The position numbers and the translations under genes were made by a program. From a virus: a DNA stretch of 62,476 nucleotides. Below are positions 2,786 to 27,786 of the stretch, in pieces; position 1 is the stretch's first letter; each line of letters opens with the position of its first letter. The stretch covers positions 1 to 62,476 of the IMG/VR virus record IMGVR_UViG_3300037189_004468, one strand, 5' to 3'. The notes below the pieces were generated by a model. The model was not told the origin of the DNA, ran no database searches, and was given only the letters and a program-made list of their open reading frames with translations.

Positions 2786-3298
2786 ATGAAAAAAACTGCA
2801 ATCAAACGATGTGAAAATAGAATTGAAAAACAAAAGATACGCGAAGCCAAGAACCATATCCCTGCCCCAATCGAACCTATTAAGTATAATTATTTAAAAT
2901 ATTGGAGACTTGTAAAGTACTGGGCACAAGTTGAAATGAGGCTAATGGAGACTGACGTGTATATGCTCTTGTACATTTACGCAGAGCGTCCCTTCACCAT
3001 GACATACTTCAAGACATATGACTCAACCTTCACGCATCAGCACTCAAGGTTTGACCGCTTCCTACGCGAAGGCTATATCGTTAAGTTCAGGCAAAACTAT
3101 AAAACTTACGGGACTCTCTACACCATCTCATTTAAAGGCAAGAAGATCTGCGATGACATCTATAAAATCTTAGAAGGCAAGAAGCACGTCCAAGTTGGTG
3201 GTAAGCAATACTATGTCAAGAAGGTCACGAATATCGCCCTTCGCAGAATGAAGAAAGACACTACGCCTGTAGAAGAACGACGACGTCCGCTTCTTTAA
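2786..3298 (+). CDS. Winged-helix (MarR-like) DNA-binding protein, antisense to the late genes
   Basis: 170 residues from ATG 2786 (MKKTAIKRCENRIEKQ). A basic N-terminus of ~35 residues is followed by a winged-helix-like region at about residues 60-140. Helices METDVYMLLYIYAE and THQHSRFDRFLREGYI are followed by a beta-wing YKTYGTLYTISFKGKKICDDIY. This resembles MarR-type regulators of one domain. It is the only convincing plus-strand gene inside the leftward late block. It has its own promoter and its 3' end overlaps the 3' end of groES by 38 bases on the opposite strand. It probably regulates phage or host transcription; the target is not visible. The start at 2786 is preferred over an upstream in-frame ATG at 2726 because of the promoter. 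Confidence 0.7.
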   Translation: MKKTAIKRCENRIEKQKIREAKNHIPAPIEPIKYNYLKYWRLVKYWAQVEMRLMETDVYMLLYIYAERPFTMTYFKTYDSTFTHQHSRFDRFLREGYIVKFRQNYKTYGTLYTISFKGKKICDDIYKILEGKKHVQVGGKQYYVKKVTNIALRRMKKDTTPVEERRRPLL

Positions 3299-3524
3299 TC
3301 ACACCATACACAACACCCTCAATGCGCACTTGATGCCCATTGCGCTTGTCAAAGTATATCATGTCACCCTCTTTCACTGCCACCACCTCGTTGCCAACAC
3401 TCACAACAGTGCCTTTGCCGTAGCGCATCTCGTCATTCTCGACATTTGTCAATAACAAACCAGAGGAGGTCTTAGCCTCCTCGATGATTTGATTGATGAT
3501 TATGTATTTATTTACAGCTCTCAT
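3261..3524 (-). CDS. groES: Phage co-chaperonin GroES
   Basis: 87 residues, slightly shorter than bacterial GroES (~95). The fold signature is visible: N-terminal strand KYIIINQI, mobile loop KTSSGLLLTN with the hydrophobic GLLL that binds GroEL, then GKGTVVSVGNEV, VKEGDMIYFDKRNG and a terminal strand VYGVIKEADVVVLL. It follows groEL with a 4-base overlap, the reverse of the usual bacterial groES-groEL order. It should cap the phage GroEL ring in the cytoplasm during folding of virion proteins. Its last 38 bases are antisense to the winged-helix gene. Confidence 0.93.
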   Translation of the reverse strand: MRAVNKYIIINQIIEEAKTSSGLLLTNVENDEMRYGKGTVVSVGNEVVAVKEGDMIYFDKRNGHQVRIEGVVYGVIKEADVVVLLQA

Positions 3525-5059
3525 TTAGCTCTCATGTTATAGATGGTACAATTGGTCCCTAAGATTGTCGTAGATACACTCACAGCGTTCTCTAAGGCAT
3601 TCTTTGTAACTTTTGAAGGGTCTATGACACCCATCTCCTTTAAATCGCCTGTAGAGGCTGTTTTGACATTGTATCCAAGGCCTGTTTGTGCGAAATGTTC
3701 TCTGATCACATCAGCATTGTCAGCGTTGATCCCTGCGTTCTCTAAAATTATGTAGAATGGAGCCACAATTGACGCTGCCATGATCTTTCTGGCAATACTA
3801 TGCTTGTCCTTGTTCCACATTTTCTCGACAAGTGACAGCAATGCGTACCCACCACCCGGTAGTATCCCCTCTTCAAGGGCTGCTTTGGTCGCGCACACCG
3901 CGTCATCGACTCTGTCTTTCTTCTCTTTTTGCTCAATATCACTGCTCGCACCCACATAAATGACAGCAACACCCCCTGCAAGGTTCGCAATTCGCTCTTC
4001 CTTGAACGCCAGGTCATCTGTTGTCATCCCTTTAATCTCATCAATACGTGCCTTCGCGCTTGCGCTGTCCTTTAGGATCACAACACTGGCATCTTTGCCA
4101 ACCACGACCTTATTTGCTTGTCCAAGGTCACTAATTGTCATCAATGAGAAGTCATCTCCCGTGTCATCAGTGATATACTTACCGCCTGTGGCAATCGCCA
4201 GGTCAGACATCAGCTCCTGCTTCTTGTATCCAAACTGTGGAGGCAAGATCACTGCAACCTTTAACACTCCCTTCATCTTGTTAAGATTTAATGAGTTAAG
4301 TGCATTCTCACCCATCTCAGAGATGATAAGTATGCTGCGGTTCTGTCTGTGCACCTCTGCCAGAATATGCTCGATGCTTTGTAATGACGAGATCTCTTGA
4401 TCAGAGATTAAGATGTACGGGTTATCTAGCACAGCTTCTTGTCTCTTCTCGTCTGTCACCATGTACTTACTTGAGTAGCCACGCTTGATTCGCATCCCGT
4501 TCACCACCTCAGAGTATGTCATGCTTGTCGATGAATTCTCAACAGTTACAGCGCCATCCTTGCCCACTTTAATGTACGCGTCAGCCACAATCTCTCCGAT
4601 CTCTTTATCGTTGTTTGCAGATATTGTCGCCACGTCAAGCAAGCTGTCGTTTGTTACCGGCACAGCCATGTCGCTCAGGTCTTTGATAATCTCTTTTGAT
4701 ACTGCCACAATGTCTCTTAGCACAGATGGATCTTTCTCAATCCCTTCAGCGGTGTACGCGTCGATGATGGCCTCTGCGAGCACTAGGGCCGTTGAAGTTC
4801 CGTCTCCCGATATTGTCGCTGTCTTCTCGCTAGCTTCCTTCATCATTGTAACCGCAAGGTTCTCGATTGGATCGTCTAGCACAATTGACTTGGCAACAGT
4901 GACACCGTCCTTCGTTACAACAATACCTCTGGTGTGATTCTCTGACTCAATTAGGACAGTCTGTCCCATTGGTCCTAATGTAGACTTGACTGCCTTCGCT
5001 ATTTTGCGAACGCCACTCATCAGTCTATCTTGGTTAAATTCAATTTCTTTTACAATCAT
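3521..5059 (-). CDS. groEL: Phage chaperonin GroEL
   Basis: 512 residues versus ~545 for bacterial GroEL. Equatorial-domain motifs are intact: KSTLGPMGQTVLIE, VTKDGVTVA, GDGTSTALVLAEAI (ATP-binding Asp, with Ser replacing the second Thr of GDGTTT), DDAVCATKAALEEG (catalytic Asp) and LPGGGYALL. The apical domain is divergent (residues ~185-370). The C-terminus ends ...CTIYNMRAK without the Gly-Gly-Met tail. A promoter element (TAAATTTG) lies at 5067-5074, 8 bases from the start. Phage-encoded GroEL is rare and is thought to fold phage structural or replication proteins independently of, or together with, host GroEL. Here it is made with its own GroES. Confidence 0.96.
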   Translation of the reverse strand: MIVKEIEFNQDRLMSGVRKIAKAVKSTLGPMGQTVLIESENHTRGIVVTKDGVTVAKSIVLDDPIENLAVTMMKEASEKTATISGDGTSTALVLAEAIIDAYTAEGIEKDPSVLRDIVAVSKEIIKDLSDMAVPVTNDSLLDVATISANNDKEIGEIVADAYIKVGKDGAVTVENSSTSMTYSEVVNGMRIKRGYSSKYMVTDEKRQEAVLDNPYILISDQEISSLQSIEHILAEVHRQNRSILIISEMGENALNSLNLNKMKGVLKVAVILPPQFGYKKQELMSDLAIATGGKYITDDTGDDFSLMTISDLGQANKVVVGKDASVVILKDSASAKARIDEIKGMTTDDLAFKEERIANLAGGVAVIYVGASSDIEQKEKKDRVDDAVCATKAALEEGILPGGGYALLSLVEKMWNKDKHSIARKIMAASIVAPFYIILENAGINADNADVIREHFAQTGLGYNVKTASTGDLKEMGVIDPSKVTKNALENAVSVSTTILGTNCTIYNMRAK

Positions 5060-7628: not shown

Positions 7629-7655
7629 TATTGTTCAATTAAGATATAAAACAAT

Positions 7656-8153
7656 ATGAAAGCCTACAAAGTAAGCGTGGACGCGTTGCGTCTAGACGAA
7701 AGAAGTGCGTACAATCCGCAAACTTGGAATTTAAACATTGATAGAATGTTAAAGTACAACGACGTAATTTTTTACAAAGTTGACAAAGGTAACGGATTTG
7801 AATACGACCGCCATTTTTGTGAATATACATTAAACGACGGGTTGAGATTATTCGCCTCATTCGATTATAGTTCTAGTATGACAAACGGCGGATTTTATCG
7901 CTTAGACATTGAAGGTATTACCAACGACGGAAAAACAATGAAAGATTTGTACAACTTAGTTAGCGAAGGCAATACAGAAGGACTCAAAGAACTTGCCGAC
8001 GAAATAGCAAACGCTACACTTTTCAACATATCATTCAATCCAATGTACAACGAAGCGGGCGAAAAGGTAGTAATTGCCACAACGCCAACGGCTCGTCAAT
8101 GGATGATTGAAAGAAGTACTAAGTTTAACATGACATTTACAAAGGGCTTTTAA
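7656..8153 (+). CDS. First early protein, unknown
   Basis: 165 residues (MKAYKVSVDALRLDERSAYN). It has aromatic and acidic content, no membrane segment and no motif I recognise. As the first gene behind the strong early promoter it is a candidate host-takeover protein, which is inference from position only. Its last codons lie inside the hairpin at 8141-8164. Confidence 0.8.
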   Translation: MKAYKVSVDALRLDERSAYNPQTWNLNIDRMLKYNDVIFYKVDKGNGFEYDRHFCEYTLNDGLRLFASFDYSSSMTNGGFYRLDIEGITNDGKTMKDLYNLVSEGNTEGLKELADEIANATLFNISFNPMYNEAGEKVVIATTPTARQWMIERSTKFNMTFTKGF

Positions 8154-8164
8154 TTAAGCCCTTT
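8141..8164 (+). terminator. Hairpin at end of first early gene
   Basis: AAAGGGCTT and AAGCCCTTT form a 9-bp stem with a 6-base loop, overlapping the stop codon at 8151-8153. It is not followed by a U-run, so it may be a weak terminator or an mRNA-end stabiliser that lets the first gene be expressed above the rest. Confidence 0.5.
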
Positions 8165-8202
8165 AATAACCCTAAAAAATATAACCAACAAAAAATAAAA
8201 CC

Positions 8203-8484
8203 ATGAACAACAATTTAATTTTACACGGACTTAATGAAAACATCGCTTATTGTGAAGCGATGGGGCTTTCTAATTGTTTCAACGCTTACGCAAATGAATG
8301 TAACGGCGAATATATCGAGGCAATCGGCTTCAATCCGAATTCGGGATATGTTTACATTTCACTAGGTAACGGCGTATCTATTTGCTCAAACATGGGGCAA
8401 CGTTGCGAATTTTTAGTAACAGACTTTGAAACGGGCGAAGAAACATTTTTTGACAATTACACACTAGCAATTAATAACTTATAA
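8203..8484 (+). CDS. Small acidic early protein, unknown
   Basis: 93 residues with five Cys and many Asn/Glu (MNNNLILHGLNENIAYCEAM). The A-rich leader is typical for Bacteroidota. No family recognised. It is followed after 1 base by the next gene. Confidence 0.75.
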   Translation: MNNNLILHGLNENIAYCEAMGLSNCFNAYANECNGEYIEAIGFNPNSGYVYISLGNGVSICSNMGQRCEFLVTDFETGEETFFDNYTLAINNL

Positions 8485-8485
8485 T

Positions 8486-8872
8486 ATGAAACGATATAAA
8501 TTAACAATCAAACATGACACGGGTAAGGTAAATATTTTTACCCGTGCAAATGACGAGCAACAAGCGATTGAGAAAGTTTGTAATTCTGAGGGATGCCCGA
8601 AAACTGCAATTATTAAAGTAACTCAATTATTTTGGTACGTTGCAATGACCGACAAGTTTATGAGTGGGTGGGGAATGGCTGACGGGTTAACAAATAAATT
8701 CATCATTGAGTGCGAGACGTTCGAGGATGCGCAAACAATTAAGCGCAACGCCTCGAAGCGAAGTGAGATGAAATATATTAATATCTCAATGGACGCGCCC
8801 AAATATTCAGGCAAAAAATATCTTTGCTCACATAAAAAGTTTAACGAATTGGGCATAATTTGGACATCATGA
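8486..8872 (+). CDS. Early protein, unknown
   Basis: 128 residues. The N-terminal half resembles a small alpha/beta domain (MKRYKLTIKHDTGKVNIFTR, then a helix DEQQAIEKVCNSEG). A similar opening (YxxTxxxxYExxF..A...A) occurs in the 105-residue protein at 9781, a pattern common in small phage host-interaction proteins. ATGA overlap with the next gene. Confidence 0.75.
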   Translation: MKRYKLTIKHDTGKVNIFTRANDEQQAIEKVCNSEGCPKTAIIKVTQLFWYVAMTDKFMSGWGMADGLTNKFIIECETFEDAQTIKRNASKRSEMKYINISMDAPKYSGKKYLCSHKKFNELGIIWTS

Positions 8873-8988
8873 CAACATTATTAATAGCAAATAGTTTACC
8901 AATCGTTTGGCTCTTAGCCTATCCAATCGGTACAATAATTTTCTACATAGTAGATACAAAAATAATTAACAAAAAAAGAAAACTATGA
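8869..8988 (+). CDS. Small single-pass membrane protein, 39 residues
   Basis: ATG at 8869 overlaps the preceding stop (ATGA), and its own stop overlaps the next start (ATGA at 8985-8988). The product MTTLLIANSLPIVWLLAYPI... has one membrane segment of about 25 residues and a basic tail (KIINKKRKL), predicting the C-terminus inside. Double stop-start overlap makes it a convincing gene. It may alter the host membrane early in infection. Confidence 0.7.
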   Translation: MTTLLIANSLPIVWLLAYPIGTIIFYIVDTKIINKKRKL

Positions 8989-9626
8989 ACACACAACAAA
9001 TAATTTACGGAATGTTAACCGAAAACACGGGCGCGCACTTTTTAGATAGTGGGGGCGCGTATGGTCGCAATCATGAGCGCAACAAATTAAAAACAATTGA
9101 AGACTTCGAACGTGAACCCGAACAAAGTTATATATATAATTACGGATATATTGAACGGCGCCTATCGGTCTTCCATTATCTCAGTCAATTATCAACGGAC
9201 GCGATATGCAAAGAGTTTAATCAATTGCCATGCAACGACCACGACGCAAACTGCGACGCAAACGGCATCAGCGCCGACCAATGGCAATGGTTAAATGATT
9301 TGGGCGACGTTGAAATTATTAATACATTCAACACCTATAACGGCGACTCAGATTTGAGCCAAATTTTACAAGGCTCTTGGATAACAATTAACGACGAACA
9401 ATACCTACTACTACAAATTCACGGGGGTTGCGACGCAAGGGGGGGTTATACTGACGCGAAACTTTTTCAAACTTGCGAAGAGTATTATATACACGAATAT
9501 TTGCGCGAATACGAAGACTCGTACGACATTAAAGAAAATTTAGAGTACGACTATATAGATGTAATCAGCGCCAAAACTGGCAAAAAAATGTCTAACAAAT
9601 GGCTACTAAACAAACTAAAATTATGA
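8985..9626 (+). CDS. Acidic early protein, unknown
   Basis: 213 residues, strongly acidic and Asn/Tyr-rich (for example DDLGDVEIINTFNTYNGDSD). It contains a His/Gly/Cys patch LLQIHGGCDARGGYTDAKLF that could bind metal. No known family recognised. ATGA overlaps at both ends place it in the early operon. Confidence 0.8.
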   Translation: MNTQQIIYGMLTENTGAHFLDSGGAYGRNHERNKLKTIEDFEREPEQSYIYNYGYIERRLSVFHYLSQLSTDAICKEFNQLPCNDHDANCDANGISADQWQWLNDLGDVEIINTFNTYNGDSDLSQILQGSWITINDEQYLLLQIHGGCDARGGYTDAKLFQTCEEYYIHEYLREYEDSYDIKENLEYDYIDVISAKTGKKMSNKWLLNKLKL

Positions 9627-9784
9627 GAAACGAACAAATAAACGACATGATTATGTCAATTGACTACGCTATTAATTTGATAGAATTAAACTATAATAGT
9701 GATATTGACGACAGGGAAATTATTGCACACAACTTACAACAATTAGACAACGCAATTGATGAACTAAAAAAACTAAAACTATGA
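9623..9784 (+). CDS. Small helical protein, unknown
   Basis: 53 residues from the ATG at 9623 that overlaps the upstream stop (MRNEQINDMIMSIDYAINLI). Predicted as two helices. A longer form from 9599 would overlap the previous gene by 28 bases and is less likely. Confidence 0.65.
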   Translation: MRNEQINDMIMSIDYAINLIELNYNSDIDDREIIAHNLQQLDNAIDELKKLKL

Positions 9785-10098
9785 GATACAATATAACAAT
9801 AACGCGCACTTATGAAACTGAATTTATCATAAGTGCCGACACCCTACAAGATGCCGAATATTGGGCTCAAAATAACGAGGATACAATCAACGAGGCGGAA
9901 CTTGACCAATGTAACATTGTCGAAACCGATGCCAAGATAATTGAAGGGGAGCCAAGCGAAAACGAACGCGAGGAAATACTTTACCTCATGAATAGAATTA
10001 AGCACCTTATAAGCGAATATAGACACGTGAGCGAATATATCCCACAACATTTAATTGACGAACTAAACAAATTGTACGACAAATATTATAACCTATGA
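9781..10098 (+). CDS. Small acidic protein, unknown
   Basis: 105 residues (MRYNITITRTYETEFIISAD, then TLQDAEYWAQNNEDTINEAE). A small beta-beta-alpha-beta N-terminal domain is followed by a helical tail. ATGA overlap at both ends. Confidence 0.75.
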   Translation: MRYNITITRTYETEFIISADTLQDAEYWAQNNEDTINEAELDQCNIVETDAKIIEGEPSENEREEILYLMNRIKHLISEYRHVSEYIPQHLIDELNKLYDKYYNL

Positions 10099-10406
10099 AC
10101 GACTTACAACAACTAGACAGAAACTACTTTTGGGTGGAACGCCCAACGGTAGTGCTCGCGGAACTACAAAAATATTTTGACCATGTCCAAGATGTAACGT
10201 ACATGAACGATAGCGCCCCATCACTTGAGATAAATGAGAGGTACTATTTATTCATGCCAACATCTACGCGCACAAACCACGACAACGAAGAGTACAATTA
10301 CTACATGATAGTGGAGAGTGAGAACTACGGGACGGACGCGCTGACAATTGAATGTGATACCTTAGACAAAGTAATTGACGAACTATATCAAATAATAGCA
10401 TTATGA
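10095..10406 (+). CDS. Small acidic protein, unknown
   Basis: 103 residues (MNDLQQLDRNYFWVERPTVV), acidic and Tyr-rich. ATGA overlap with both neighbours. No family recognised. Confidence 0.72.
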   Translation: MNDLQQLDRNYFWVERPTVVLAELQKYFDHVQDVTYMNDSAPSLEINERYYLFMPTSTRTNHDNEEYNYYMIVESENYGTDALTIECDTLDKVIDELYQIIAL

Positions 10407-10672
10407 AAAAATTAATAGTAAAAGACGCAATCGAGATAATTAAAAGTAAGAGATTTTTCTCTGCTGAATTCACAAAAAAGGACGGCACAACGCGTTATAT
10501 TTTTGGGAGATATGGTGTAAAAAAACACCTCAAACCAAACGCAAAGCCTCAAACATACAACCCCGCGGAACGTGGATACCTTACAATTTGGGATATGCAA
10601 ATAAAACAATACCGACTAATTAATACACAAACTTTAACAACGATAAACAACCAAACAATTTATGCTAACTAA
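10403..10672 (+). CDS. Small basic protein, unknown
   Basis: 89 residues, basic, with TKKDGTTRYIFGRYGVKKHL in the middle and YLTIWDMQIKQYRLINTQTL near the end. This layout is seen in small SH3-like phage proteins of unknown function and could bind nucleic acid. It ends 11 bases into the next gene. Confidence 0.7.
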   Translation: MKKLIVKDAIEIIKSKRFFSAEFTKKDGTTRYIFGRYGVKKHLKPNAKPQTYNPAERGYLTIWDMQIKQYRLINTQTLTTINNQTIYAN

Positions 10673-10898
10673 ACGCGAATATTTCGACAAATTAACAACG
10701 GGCGCAAAATTAGATTACCCCGACTTGATGGATCAGATAAACGACCTAATCGACGAGATGCTGAGCGAGACTGATAACCAACCAACGGACAACGACCTTT
10801 GGGATGCCGAGCAACAATTGAACGACCTAATTGAGCGCAACCCAAAATACACGCACAAAGCACCAATGCCAGAAACTTGGTACGAACAAAATTTATGA
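10662..10898 (+). CDS. Small acidic protein, unknown
   Basis: 78 residues (MLTKREYFDKLTTGAKLDYP), helical and acidic. It overlaps the previous gene by 11 bases and is the last of the first ATGA-linked group. Confidence 0.7.
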   Translation: MLTKREYFDKLTTGAKLDYPDLMDQINDLIDEMLSETDNQPTDNDLWDAEQQLNDLIERNPKYTHKAPMPETWYEQNL

Positions 10899-10954
10899 CA
10901 AAAAACTGACAAAACTATTTTTTTATTCCCAAAATACACACTAATATTGCACCC

Positions 10955-11314
10955 ATGATAAGATTAACAACCAACAACGGCCACGACCAAAAAATTATTG
11001 ACGCATTCAATAAGGTATCACATCAATTCAGCGACCCATATTTGTTGTCGCACATACTCACACATTGGGCTGATGACAGCGACATTGAGGGTATCACTAC
11101 ATTCCTAAACAACTTGTTGTCAGAAAATGATGACGACGATACAAAAAACTGCAGTATCACGGGTGAACCAATGACCGAGGGATGGGTTGCCAACGATGGC
11201 GAAATATACTTCAAGTACGAAAAAGATGCCCTTGCATGGTGTTTAGAAAACGAATACGAGAGTATCGAAGATGCCTACGAAAACGAGGCAATCTATTACA
11301 CTGAGTGGGAATAA
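10955..11314 (+). CDS. Acidic protein with a Cys/EPM motif, unknown
   Basis: 119 residues. The C-terminal half has NCSITGEPMTEGWVANDGEI and then helices dense in Glu/Tyr. The C-x5-M-x-EG-x8-YF arrangement looks like a small conserved domain but I cannot name it. A 56-base gap upstream separates it from the previous cluster. It is followed directly by the structured RNA. Confidence 0.75.
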   Translation: MIRLTTNNGHDQKIIDAFNKVSHQFSDPYLLSHILTHWADDSDIEGITTFLNNLLSENDDDDTKNCSITGEPMTEGWVANDGEIYFKYEKDALAWCLENEYESIEDAYENEAIYYTEWE

Positions 11315-11318
11315 TATA

Positions 11319-11575
11319 TTGCTCTAATGGGGTAACTCCCCATTAAAGCAACCAATAAAGTTCATTGACGTAAGGGGCGAATTAAGTGTAACAACTTAAT
11401 AGGTGGGTGCTAACAATCCGTTAGCATGAATTGACGAGGATTAGTCAATACCTACTGAAGGCGGGAATAAATGGTTGCGAGAGTCCCTCGCATTGAATGA
11501 GCGCGGAACAACTCAGCCAACCACACGACAAGCGCAGAGCGGTACTTCGGTGTACCCGTGTGGGCTAAACCTAAC
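11319..11575 (+). ncRNA. Unidentified multi-helix structured RNA
   Basis: About 255 bases with dense ordered pairing and no gene. Hairpin 11319-11351: TTGCT/AGCAA outside, AATGGGG/CCCCATT inside, loop TAACT. Then ATTAAGT/ACTTAAT, and a three-way junction closed by TAGGT/ACCTA that holds TGCTAAC/GTTAGCA and ATTGAC/GTCAAT. A second three-way junction is closed by TGGTT/AACCA and holds GCGAG/CTCGC and TGAG/CTCA. Last is CCACACG/CGTGTGG around GGTAC-TTCGGT-GTACC. Nearly every helix is perfect, which is unlikely by chance. It does not fit tRNA, tmRNA, RNase P or 6S as I know them. It could be a ribozyme, a cis regulator of the following genes or a trans-acting phage RNA. Confidence 0.7.
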
Positions 11576-11607
11576 ACTAAATTATAACAAACACACAACA
11601 CTAAAAT

Positions 11608-11838
11608 ATGAACCTATTTAGAATTAACACCACGGCATTTCACGAGGAAGATTTCACAATCTACACGGACTTAACAAAAGAACAAGTTACAACTATTGTA
11701 CAACCAATTGTCTATAGTGAACGATTTGGGGACGGGTCTTACAACAACGATGATTTGGTTAGCGCATTAAATAATGCATACCCAAACAACTACATCTCAC
11801 AACGATACTACAACGAACCCGAAATGATATCAATATGA
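11608..11838 (+). CDS. Small protein downstream of the structured RNA, unknown
   Basis: 76 residues (MNLFRINTTAFHEEDFTIYT). First gene after the RNA, 33 bases past its last helix. Acidic, Asn/Tyr-rich. ATGA overlap with the next gene. Confidence 0.7.
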   Translation: MNLFRINTTAFHEEDFTIYTDLTKEQVTTIVQPIVYSERFGDGSYNNDDLVSALNNAYPNNYISQRYYNEPEMISI

Positions 11839-12038
11839 ATATAACAATAAACATTTTGGAAGTTGCAAGTGAACTTGCACACCAAAGATTGGTTGAAGAC
11901 TGGGCATCAATTGGCAATAGTGGTACTCCACTATACAACGGAGAGAATTATTGTGAAGATGCTCAAGACATTTTTAACGATTACTACGACAATTATTATT
12001 TAATATTAGAAAGCGCAAATGAAACTAACAAACGATAA
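11835..12038 (+). CDS. Small acidic protein, unknown
   Basis: 67 residues (MNITINILEVASELAHQRLV). One helix then an acidic Tyr/Asp-rich tail (EDAQDIFNDYYDNYYLILES). It overlaps the next gene by 20 bases. Confidence 0.68.
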   Translation: MNITINILEVASELAHQRLVEDWASIGNSGTPLYNGENYCEDAQDIFNDYYDNYYLILESANETNKR

Positions 12039-12327
12039 CTTTGTATGGGACATTGTCCCAACGAATGAGGTAGCAGATGCCTACGCAAAAGGTGAAGTAT
12101 TTATCCTGCACGACGATGACACGGAGTCATTGTACACGGGCGAACCAATTGACGAGAACTTAACTTACGGCACTGAGGTCGGATGGCTTAAGGATATAGA
12201 CGACAGACAAATATTAACATTATTAGCAGTACGCAAGTACGGGCATCTAAAAGACCCTGACCTAATATGGCGATTTGTTGCGCTCTCAACCAACGGACTA
12301 ATTAACATGATCAAGAATGATGAGTGA
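12019..12327 (+). CDS. Acidic protein, unknown
   Basis: 102 residues (MKLTNDNFVWDIVPTNEVAD), Asp/Glu-rich N-terminal half and a helical C-terminus. No recognised domain. It overlaps both neighbours by 11-20 bases. Confidence 0.72.
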   Translation: MKLTNDNFVWDIVPTNEVADAYAKGEVFILHDDDTESLYTGEPIDENLTYGTEVGWLKDIDDRQILTLLAVRKYGHLKDPDLIWRFVALSTNGLINMIKNDE

Positions 12328-26908: not shown

Positions 26909-27030
26909 TCAGCCCCGTTGGCCAGGGGATCGTAAAATACAGATCGGCATCTTAACAATGCCCAAGACATCTGTTCTCATCGTATAGGAGATAGGGTTAG
27001 CCTTCCCGACATCGTTCAAAAAGGCAAACA

Positions 27031-27117
27031 TAGTCAGGTGGCGGAATGGTAACGCAAAGTAAGATGGGTAAGAAACTACTCAGTTCACTTCATACAGGTT
27101 CGAGTCCTGTCCGACTA
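27031..27117 (+). tRNA. tRNA-like unit A, anticodon unassigned
   Basis: The acceptor strands TAGTCAG (27031-27037) and CCGACTA (27111-27117) pair with one mismatch. A Leu/Ser-like D-arm GTGGCGGAATGGTAACGC follows, then a perfect T-arm ACAGG-TTCGAGT-CCTGT. Length 87 fits a long-variable-arm tRNA, but no 5-bp stem with a 7-base loop could be drawn for the anticodon arm. It may be degenerate or hold an insertion. No CCA is encoded. Confidence 0.5.
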
Positions 27118-27261
27118 CACCGGTAATGGGAAGGGAGCCCACGTTAAACTAAACCGTTGGAGGCTGTCGAGCCTTATGGATCGGTGTACCTAGATGTAAA
27201 ATTGGTGCTATTGGTCTCTGAAGAACAGGGAACACGGGTAACTGCAAGATAAGTTACAACC

Positions 27262-27368
27262 CCATCGTGGCGGAAGGTTAGGGATATCCCTGACGTGGTA
27301 GACGCTATTAATTAACACTTAGTGTTAGTAAGAAATATACAAAGTACAGGTTCGAGTCCTGTCGATGG
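27262..27368 (+). tRNA. tRNA-like unit B with inserted D-loop hairpin
   Basis: Acceptor strands CCATCG (27262-27267) and CGATGG (27363-27368) pair perfectly, and the T-arm ACAGG-TTCGAGT-CCTGT is identical to unit A. The D-arm GTGGCGGAA...TGGTAGACGC is split by about 20 bases that form their own hairpin TTAGGG-ATAT-CCCTGA. A possible anticodon arm is ATTAA-TTAACAC-TTAGT, but it overlaps an alternative hairpin AACAC-TTA-GTGTT. At 107 bases it is too long for a normal tRNA. Confidence 0.45.
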
Positions 27369-27375
27369 TGGCAAA

Positions 27376-27786
27376 ATGATTATAAGAATAGAAAATATTG
27401 AATGTCGTTTAGTTTGTGAACAATGCGAGATTGTTAAGTGGTTTCCTAATACGTACTACGGTTCTGAGGCCCAATTAGAATCAGAGGGATATAAAAGAAT
27501 TGAACACGAGAATGGTGGATTTTCTTACAAAAGAGGATTTCATAACATTCATGGATCTTGCTTTCAAGGTAAAGAGAGTTGTTGTGTGATTGCTTTTATT
27601 GATGATGACTCAGATGAGGGCTTAGAAATAAGACCAGTTGGAGCCAGACTACTTAATTTGAGCAAAGAGGAAAGGGATATCTTCTTTGATGTCTATAAGT
27701 ACGTAAACGATAGAGCTTTAAATGACAAGGGAATAACAGAGGGGCATCAATGTCCCTCTGTAAACACAATGTCAGTTCAAACCTGA
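27376..27786 (+). CDS. Cys-rich protein, unknown
   Basis: 136 residues from the ATG at 27376 (MIIRIENIECRLVCEQCEIV), placed just after tRNA-like unit B; a longer frame from 27322 would run through that RNA. Cys pairs VCEQC, GSCFQ and ESCCV suggest metal binding. Composition is otherwise ordinary. No family recognised. Confidence 0.65.
   Translation: MIIRIENIECRLVCEQCEIVKWFPNTYYGSEAQLESEGYKRIEHENGGFSYKRGFHNIHGSCFQGKESCCVIAFIDDDSDEGLEIRPVGARLLNLSKEERDIFFDVYKYVNDRALNDKGITEGHQCPSVNTMSVQT

What the first reader, a model, noticed from the sequence alone, without database searches (positions are those of the whole stretch)
11319..11575. Unknown structured RNA in the early operon
Nine or more perfect helices including two three-way junctions fit within about 255 bases between two gene clusters. 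I cannot assign it to a known family. Its position suggests it is transcribed with the early operon.
Basis: seen in the sequence. Interest (0 to 1): 0.7.

Follow-up and report, generated by a model that had tools for sequence, protein, structure and literature searches.

The report
New structured RNA in lake phages
A phage that probably infects Flavobacteria-like bacteria carries, between two small early genes, a roughly 245-base RNA whose folded shape is kept by evolution in the three known relatives that hold this region and matches no catalogued RNA family; what it does is unknown.

Summary
Window 11319-11563 (+) is a non-coding, strongly folded element. Three other phage contigs carry it, at 92.7-96.3% identity. 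Neighbouring genes keep only 72-77% of fourfold-degenerate sites in the same comparisons, so the element is under selection. Variation is structure-preserving: 4 pairs change on both sides (about 0.6 expected, P about 0.002), 3 change by G-C/G-U swaps, and 267 of 268 pair cells stay paired. One three-way junction (P3/P4/P5) is solid; the second (P6/P7/P8) competes with a better helix and is unproven. Rfam 15 gives nothing, even at E<=10. The distribution is narrow: one lineage of podoviruses related to Cellulophaga Callevirus and Flavobacterium Elemovirus. It lies inside a co-directional early gene run, not between gene clusters. It follows an early ORF whose homologue in Cellulophaga phage phi38:1 is followed, 8 bases on, by a tRNA gene. 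The downstream gene differs between relatives, which argues against a leader for one gene. Best reading: a new, lineage-specific phage RNA cut from the early transcript and acting in trans. Function is inferred, not shown.

The parts
11319..11565 (+). Whole structured RNA element, about 245 nt
   Evidence: Aligns end to end with L049:5069-5322, L001:747-1000 and L050:2020-2273 at 92.7-96.3% identity; 99.6% of pair cells kept
11319..11351 (+). P1, 5' hairpin (13 pairs with one conserved C/A mismatch)
   Evidence: Two compensatory pair changes, U-A to G-C and G-C to A-U
11381..11400 (+). P2 hairpin, 7 pairs, loop GUAACA
   Evidence: Invariant in four sequences: says nothing for or against
11402..11456 (+). 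Three-way junction: P3 (11402-11408 with 11450-11456), P4 (11409-11414 with 11420-11425), P5 (11430-11435 with 11444-11449)
   Evidence: P3 register supported by a G-U to G-C change; the alternative register is broken in L001
11438..11486 (+). Loop-loop pseudoknot: P5 loop GGAUU/GGACU (11438-11442) with P7 loop AGUCC (11482-11486)
   Evidence: U-G to C-G change in two of four sequences keeps all five pairs
11477..11491 (+). P7 hairpin GCGAG-AGUCC-CUCGC
   Evidence: Compensatory G-C to A-U change in L050
11498..11515 (+). P8, weak 4-pair hairpin UGAG/CUCA
   Evidence: Invariant; unproven
11521..11563 (+). P9 (11521-11527 with 11557-11563) capped by P10 (11541-11545 with 11552-11556)
   Evidence: P9: C-G to U-G change. 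P10: G-C to A-U compensatory change in L049 but an A/C mismatch in L050
11472..11523 (+). Contested helix P6 UGGUU/AACCA (11472-11476 with 11519-11523); UGGUU can instead pair with AACCA at 11350-11354
   Evidence: Invariant, mutually exclusive with full-length P9 and with the base of P1
10955..11314 (+). Upstream early ORF, 119 aa, conserved C-terminal domain (CxITGExMTEGWVANDG...YWTEWE)
   Evidence: Present before the RNA in all four phages; homologue in Cellulophaga phi38:1 is followed by tRNA-Glu
10898..10954 (+). Conserved promoter-like stretch before the upstream ORF (CTATTTTTTTATTC...ACTAATATTGCAC)
   Evidence: 87-89% identical in L049 and L050; the same motif is also visible in L001; promoter function inferred

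Best explanation
The element is a discrete non-coding RNA gene of a lineage of Bacteroidota podoviruses. It is transcribed with the early genes from a promoter before ORF 10955-11314. It is then probably cut out of, or protected within, the early transcript, as the tRNA in the same place in Cellulophaga phages must be. It folds into a 5' hairpin, a three-way junction tied to a downstream hairpin by a loop-loop pseudoknot, and a 3' hairpin. The free RNA most likely acts in trans during early infection by binding a host or phage protein or RNA. Shown: homology, non-coding status, selection, structure, conserved gene context. Inferred: transcription, processing, trans action, and partner (unknown).
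For: Members in three other contigs. Element 95.9% identical between window and L049 while fourfold sites of neighbouring genes are 77.2% identical; 95.1% against 71.9% for L001. Four two-sided compensatory pairs and three G-U swaps, P about 0.002 for co-location of variable columns. No coding frame. The gene directly downstream differs between members: in L001 and L050 other DNA separates the RNA from the 30-nt leader that follows it in the window, and in L001 that DNA begins a different ORF. A block of the upstream ORF's C-terminal part plus the RNA is shared, ending at the RNA's 3' end in L001 and L050. In phi38:1 the homologous ORF is followed 8 bases later by a tRNA gene, so RNA genes do sit there. 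Pairing is kept better on the + strand (267 of 268 cells) than on the - strand (258).
Against: Only four sequences, all within about 7% of each other, so most helices never vary and are untested. No RNA-seq. No intrinsic terminator or own promoter was recognised, so a separate transcript is not demonstrated. All four share the same upstream ORF, so a 3'-end role for that mRNA is not excluded.
Confidence: 0.5

Rival explanations
1. Cis-acting element of the early mRNA: a structured spacer that stabilises the upstream ORF's 3' end, is an endonuclease site, or sets the translation of the next gene.
For: No terminator or own promoter. The same upstream ORF precedes it in all four phages. The repeated AACCA and AUUGAC segments could allow alternative pairings, as in a switch.
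Against: The downstream gene differs between members. The upstream domain also occurs without the RNA in L248, and phi38:1 has a tRNA there instead. A pseudoknotted fold of this size is more than a stabiliser needs (inference).
Confidence: 0.3
2. A DNA-level element, such as a replication origin or single-strand initiation site, whose hairpins form in DNA.
For: The cumulative GC-skew minimum lies within about 1 kb of the element in both the window and G001. The reverse strand folds equally well.
Against: Skew at fourfold sites hardly changes and the third-position shift sits about 750 bp downstream, so the skew pattern looks like codon usage of a gene block. Three one-sided changes and an invariant G-U keep pairing only as RNA of the + strand, against one the other way.
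Confidence: 0.1
3. A degenerate or highly divergent member of a known RNA class (tmRNA, tRNA-like, group I intron, or phage ornate RNA such as GOLLD/ROOL) that Rfam models miss.
For: Related Cellulophaga phages do carry a tmRNA and tRNAs in the same genome area.
Against: No hit at E<=10 with lax filters against 4227 families. No T-arm-like GGUUCGA sequence in the element. Only about 245 nt against more than 800 nt for many GOLLD members (PMC12286853). Not inserted in a gene.
Confidence: 0.08

Closest known systems
GOLLD and ROOL RNAs of phages and prophages (PMC12286853)
   Same: Phage-encoded, elaborate, pseudoknotted, function unknown, often near tRNA genes
   Different: Much larger, homo-oligomeric nanocages, with Rfam models that do not match here; oligomerisation here untested
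tRNA-Glu gene behind gp051 of Cellulophaga phage phi38:1 (Callevirus)
   Same: Same place, directly after the homologous early ORF
   Different: An ordinary 72-nt tRNA; the window element has no tRNA features
tmRNA of Cellulophaga phages phi38:1 and Calle_1 (RF00023)
   Same: Large structured RNA of a related phage's genome
   Different: No covariance-model match and no tRNA-like domain in the window element

Membership tests
Any Rfam 15 family (4227 models) | Covariance-model score at or near the gathering threshold | tested here: not met
   None at gathering threshold; none at E<=10 for 11250-11650
GOLLD / ROOL | Match to the family covariance model | tested here: not met
   length about 245 nt against more than 800 nt for many GOLLD members
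GOLLD / ROOL | Homo-oligomeric cage | not testable with these tools
   Needs native gel or cryo-EM
tmRNA / tRNA | tRNA-like domain with T-arm and acceptor stem | tested here: not met
   ARAGORN none; Rfam none; no GGUUCGA motif in the sequence
Riboswitch or leader of one gene | Conserved association with the same downstream gene | tested here: not met
   The gene directly downstream differs in L001, and the next leader is displaced in L050
Intrinsic terminator | GC hairpin followed by a T run on the + strand | tested here: not met
   No + strand terminator-like site in 10850-11900
Trans-acting phage ncRNA | Stable separate transcript | not testable with these tools
   No expression data

The most novel reading that the evidence does not exclude
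A new RNA family: a compact, pseudoknotted early-phage RNA that works in trans, for example as a decoy or inhibitor of a host defence or RNA-processing factor, taking the place of a tRNA gene in related phages.
Probability: 0.35. Interest if true: 0.75.

Novelty: new variant of a known kind. Interest (0 to 1): 0.5.

Why it matters
Few phage non-coding RNAs outside tRNAs and tmRNA have a covariation-supported structure. This one is short, well delimited, early-placed and under strong selection, so it can be tested by probing, pull-down and deletion. It gives a ready covariance model with which to look for relatives in lake viromes.

Tried and rejected
Helix 11360-11366 with 11495-11501 region in the minimum-energy fold: broken in L049 and competes with covarying P7. 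Origin-of-replication reading from GC skew: weakened by fourfold-site analysis. Covariance-model search in 73 loci carrying Sak relatives found nothing credible, and in 41 whole virus records only the known member G001/L049. Loci fetched by short DNA patterns gave only weak local matches. One weak hit in 395 Bacteroidia genomes (L257, 19 bits, core missing) is judged chance, since about 4 would be expected at E<=0.01 over 395 genomes. MW202828.1, phi38:1, Calle_1 and Elemovirus stretches: no member; the unannotated 590-nt gap of MW202828.1 is not unusually structured. L262 matched a pattern but not the model. Antisense matches to the phage's own genome: only 11-mers, judged chance. BLAST of phages and plasmids: none.

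Full report
What is there. The window is a virus record of 62,476 bases. Its terminase is 69.8% identical to that of an uncultured podovirus (MW202828.1) and under 60% to Flavobacterium Elemovirus and other flavobacterial phages, with Cellulophaga phages also among the matches. The finding lies in a run of small early genes on the + strand, between ORF 10955-11314 and ORF 11608-11838. It is therefore inside one co-directional gene run rather than between two clusters.

Is it more than chance? The stretch folds better than 200 dinucleotide shuffles (z -3.7), but so does its complement (z -4.2). After allowing for GC content it is only about the sixth most stable of 1038 sampled stretches of the window. 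Energy alone is thus weak evidence. The comparison with relatives is what decides.

Relatives. Exact-pattern scans and a search with the nearby Sak annealing protein found the element in three other contigs: L049 (63.6 kb), L001 and L028/L050. Patterns placed in other parts of the RNA returned the same three, so the collection probably holds no other close member. The four copies are 92.7-96.3% identical. Fourfold-degenerate sites of neighbouring genes are only 77.2% (L049) and 71.9% (L001) identical. All frames contain stops in every member. This is purifying selection on a non-coding sequence.

Structure. In window coordinates: P1 11319-11351; P2 11381-11400; P3 11402-11408/11450-11456 enclosing P4 11409-11425 and P5 11430-11449 (three-way junction with no spare bases at two of its three corners); P7 11477-11491; P8 11498-11515; P9 11521-11527/11557-11563 with P10 11541-11556. 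The P5 loop GGAUU or GGACU pairs with the P7 loop AGUCC in all four. Of 24 variable columns, 11 lie in pairs. Four pairs change on both sides (two in P1, one in P7, one in P10) where 0.6 are expected by random placement (P 0.0016), and three change by G-C/G-U swaps. A single cell, P10 in L050, is broken. Sliding the partners by one to three columns drops pairing to under 40%. The structure was chosen partly from the window's own fold, so the percentage paired is biased upward; the two-sided changes are not. P2, P4, P5 and P8 never vary and remain untested.

Across all four sequences the version with full P9 is about 6 kcal/mol better. UGGUU can also pair with a second AACCA at 11350-11354. Whether this is a switch or coincidence is open.

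Context. A 62-66 base promoter-like stretch before ORF 10955 is shared by the relatives. The shared block with L001 and L050 begins inside that ORF and ends at the RNA's 3' end. Behind the RNA, the window and L049 go straight to the MNLFRINTTAF gene; in L001 a different ORF comes first, and in L050 the shared 30-nt leader of that gene is likewise displaced by about 230 bases. The upstream ORF's C-terminal domain also exists without the RNA in L248. In Cellulophaga phi38:1 its homologue (42.9% identical over 56 residues, E 1e-5) is followed after 8 bases by tRNA-Glu. RNA genes therefore do occupy this place in related phages.

Reading. The evidence fits a discrete RNA gene carried in the early operon best, and a single-gene leader worst. 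That it is processed and acts in trans is inference. A cis role for the upstream mRNA is the main rival. A DNA-level origin is weakened because the GC-skew change is largely codon usage and because pairing is better kept on the + strand as RNA (267 against 258 cells).

Known families. Nothing in Rfam 15 matches at E<=10. The nearest kind is the phage ornate RNAs GOLLD and ROOL, which are larger and also of unknown function (PMC12286853). No literature on an RNA in this phage group was found in the searches made; the library is not complete. The result is a new RNA family by sequence and structure, of a kind already known to exist, with a narrow distribution.

Noticed in passing
window 26909-27370: A second non-coding stretch of about 400 bases, GC 47%, with two tRNA-like domains (Rfam tRNA 30.8 and 30.0 bits, just above gathering when searched alone; missed by ARAGORN). 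In G001 the flanking sequence is nearly identical but the anticodon-arm regions differ strongly, and ARAGORN reads one as a tRNA with a four-base anticodon ttga. Looks like swapped tRNA inserts in a conserved RNA frame.
   Followed up: partly
window 27322-27786: The predicted ORF starting here begins inside the 3' half of the second tRNA-like domain, so its listed start is probably wrong.
   Followed up: no
window 7650-12300: The left early gene block has C-ending codon preference and near-zero or negative GC skew despite + strand genes; the cumulative GC-skew minimum falls within it, also in G001.
   Followed up: partly
window 11318-11352, - strand: The complement of P1 resembles an intrinsic terminator for the - strand, though no - strand gene is apparent nearby.
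   Followed up: no
window 3261-5059, - strand: Phage-encoded GroES/GroEL-like pair, judged from the sequences and from annotated GroEL/GroES genes in MW202828.1 and an Elemovirus.
   Followed up: no
L263:8748-9109: Cellulophaga phage phi38:1 has a tmRNA (87.6 bits) that is not among the record's listed features for that stretch; Calle_1 has one annotated at a nearly overlapping position.
   Followed up: no
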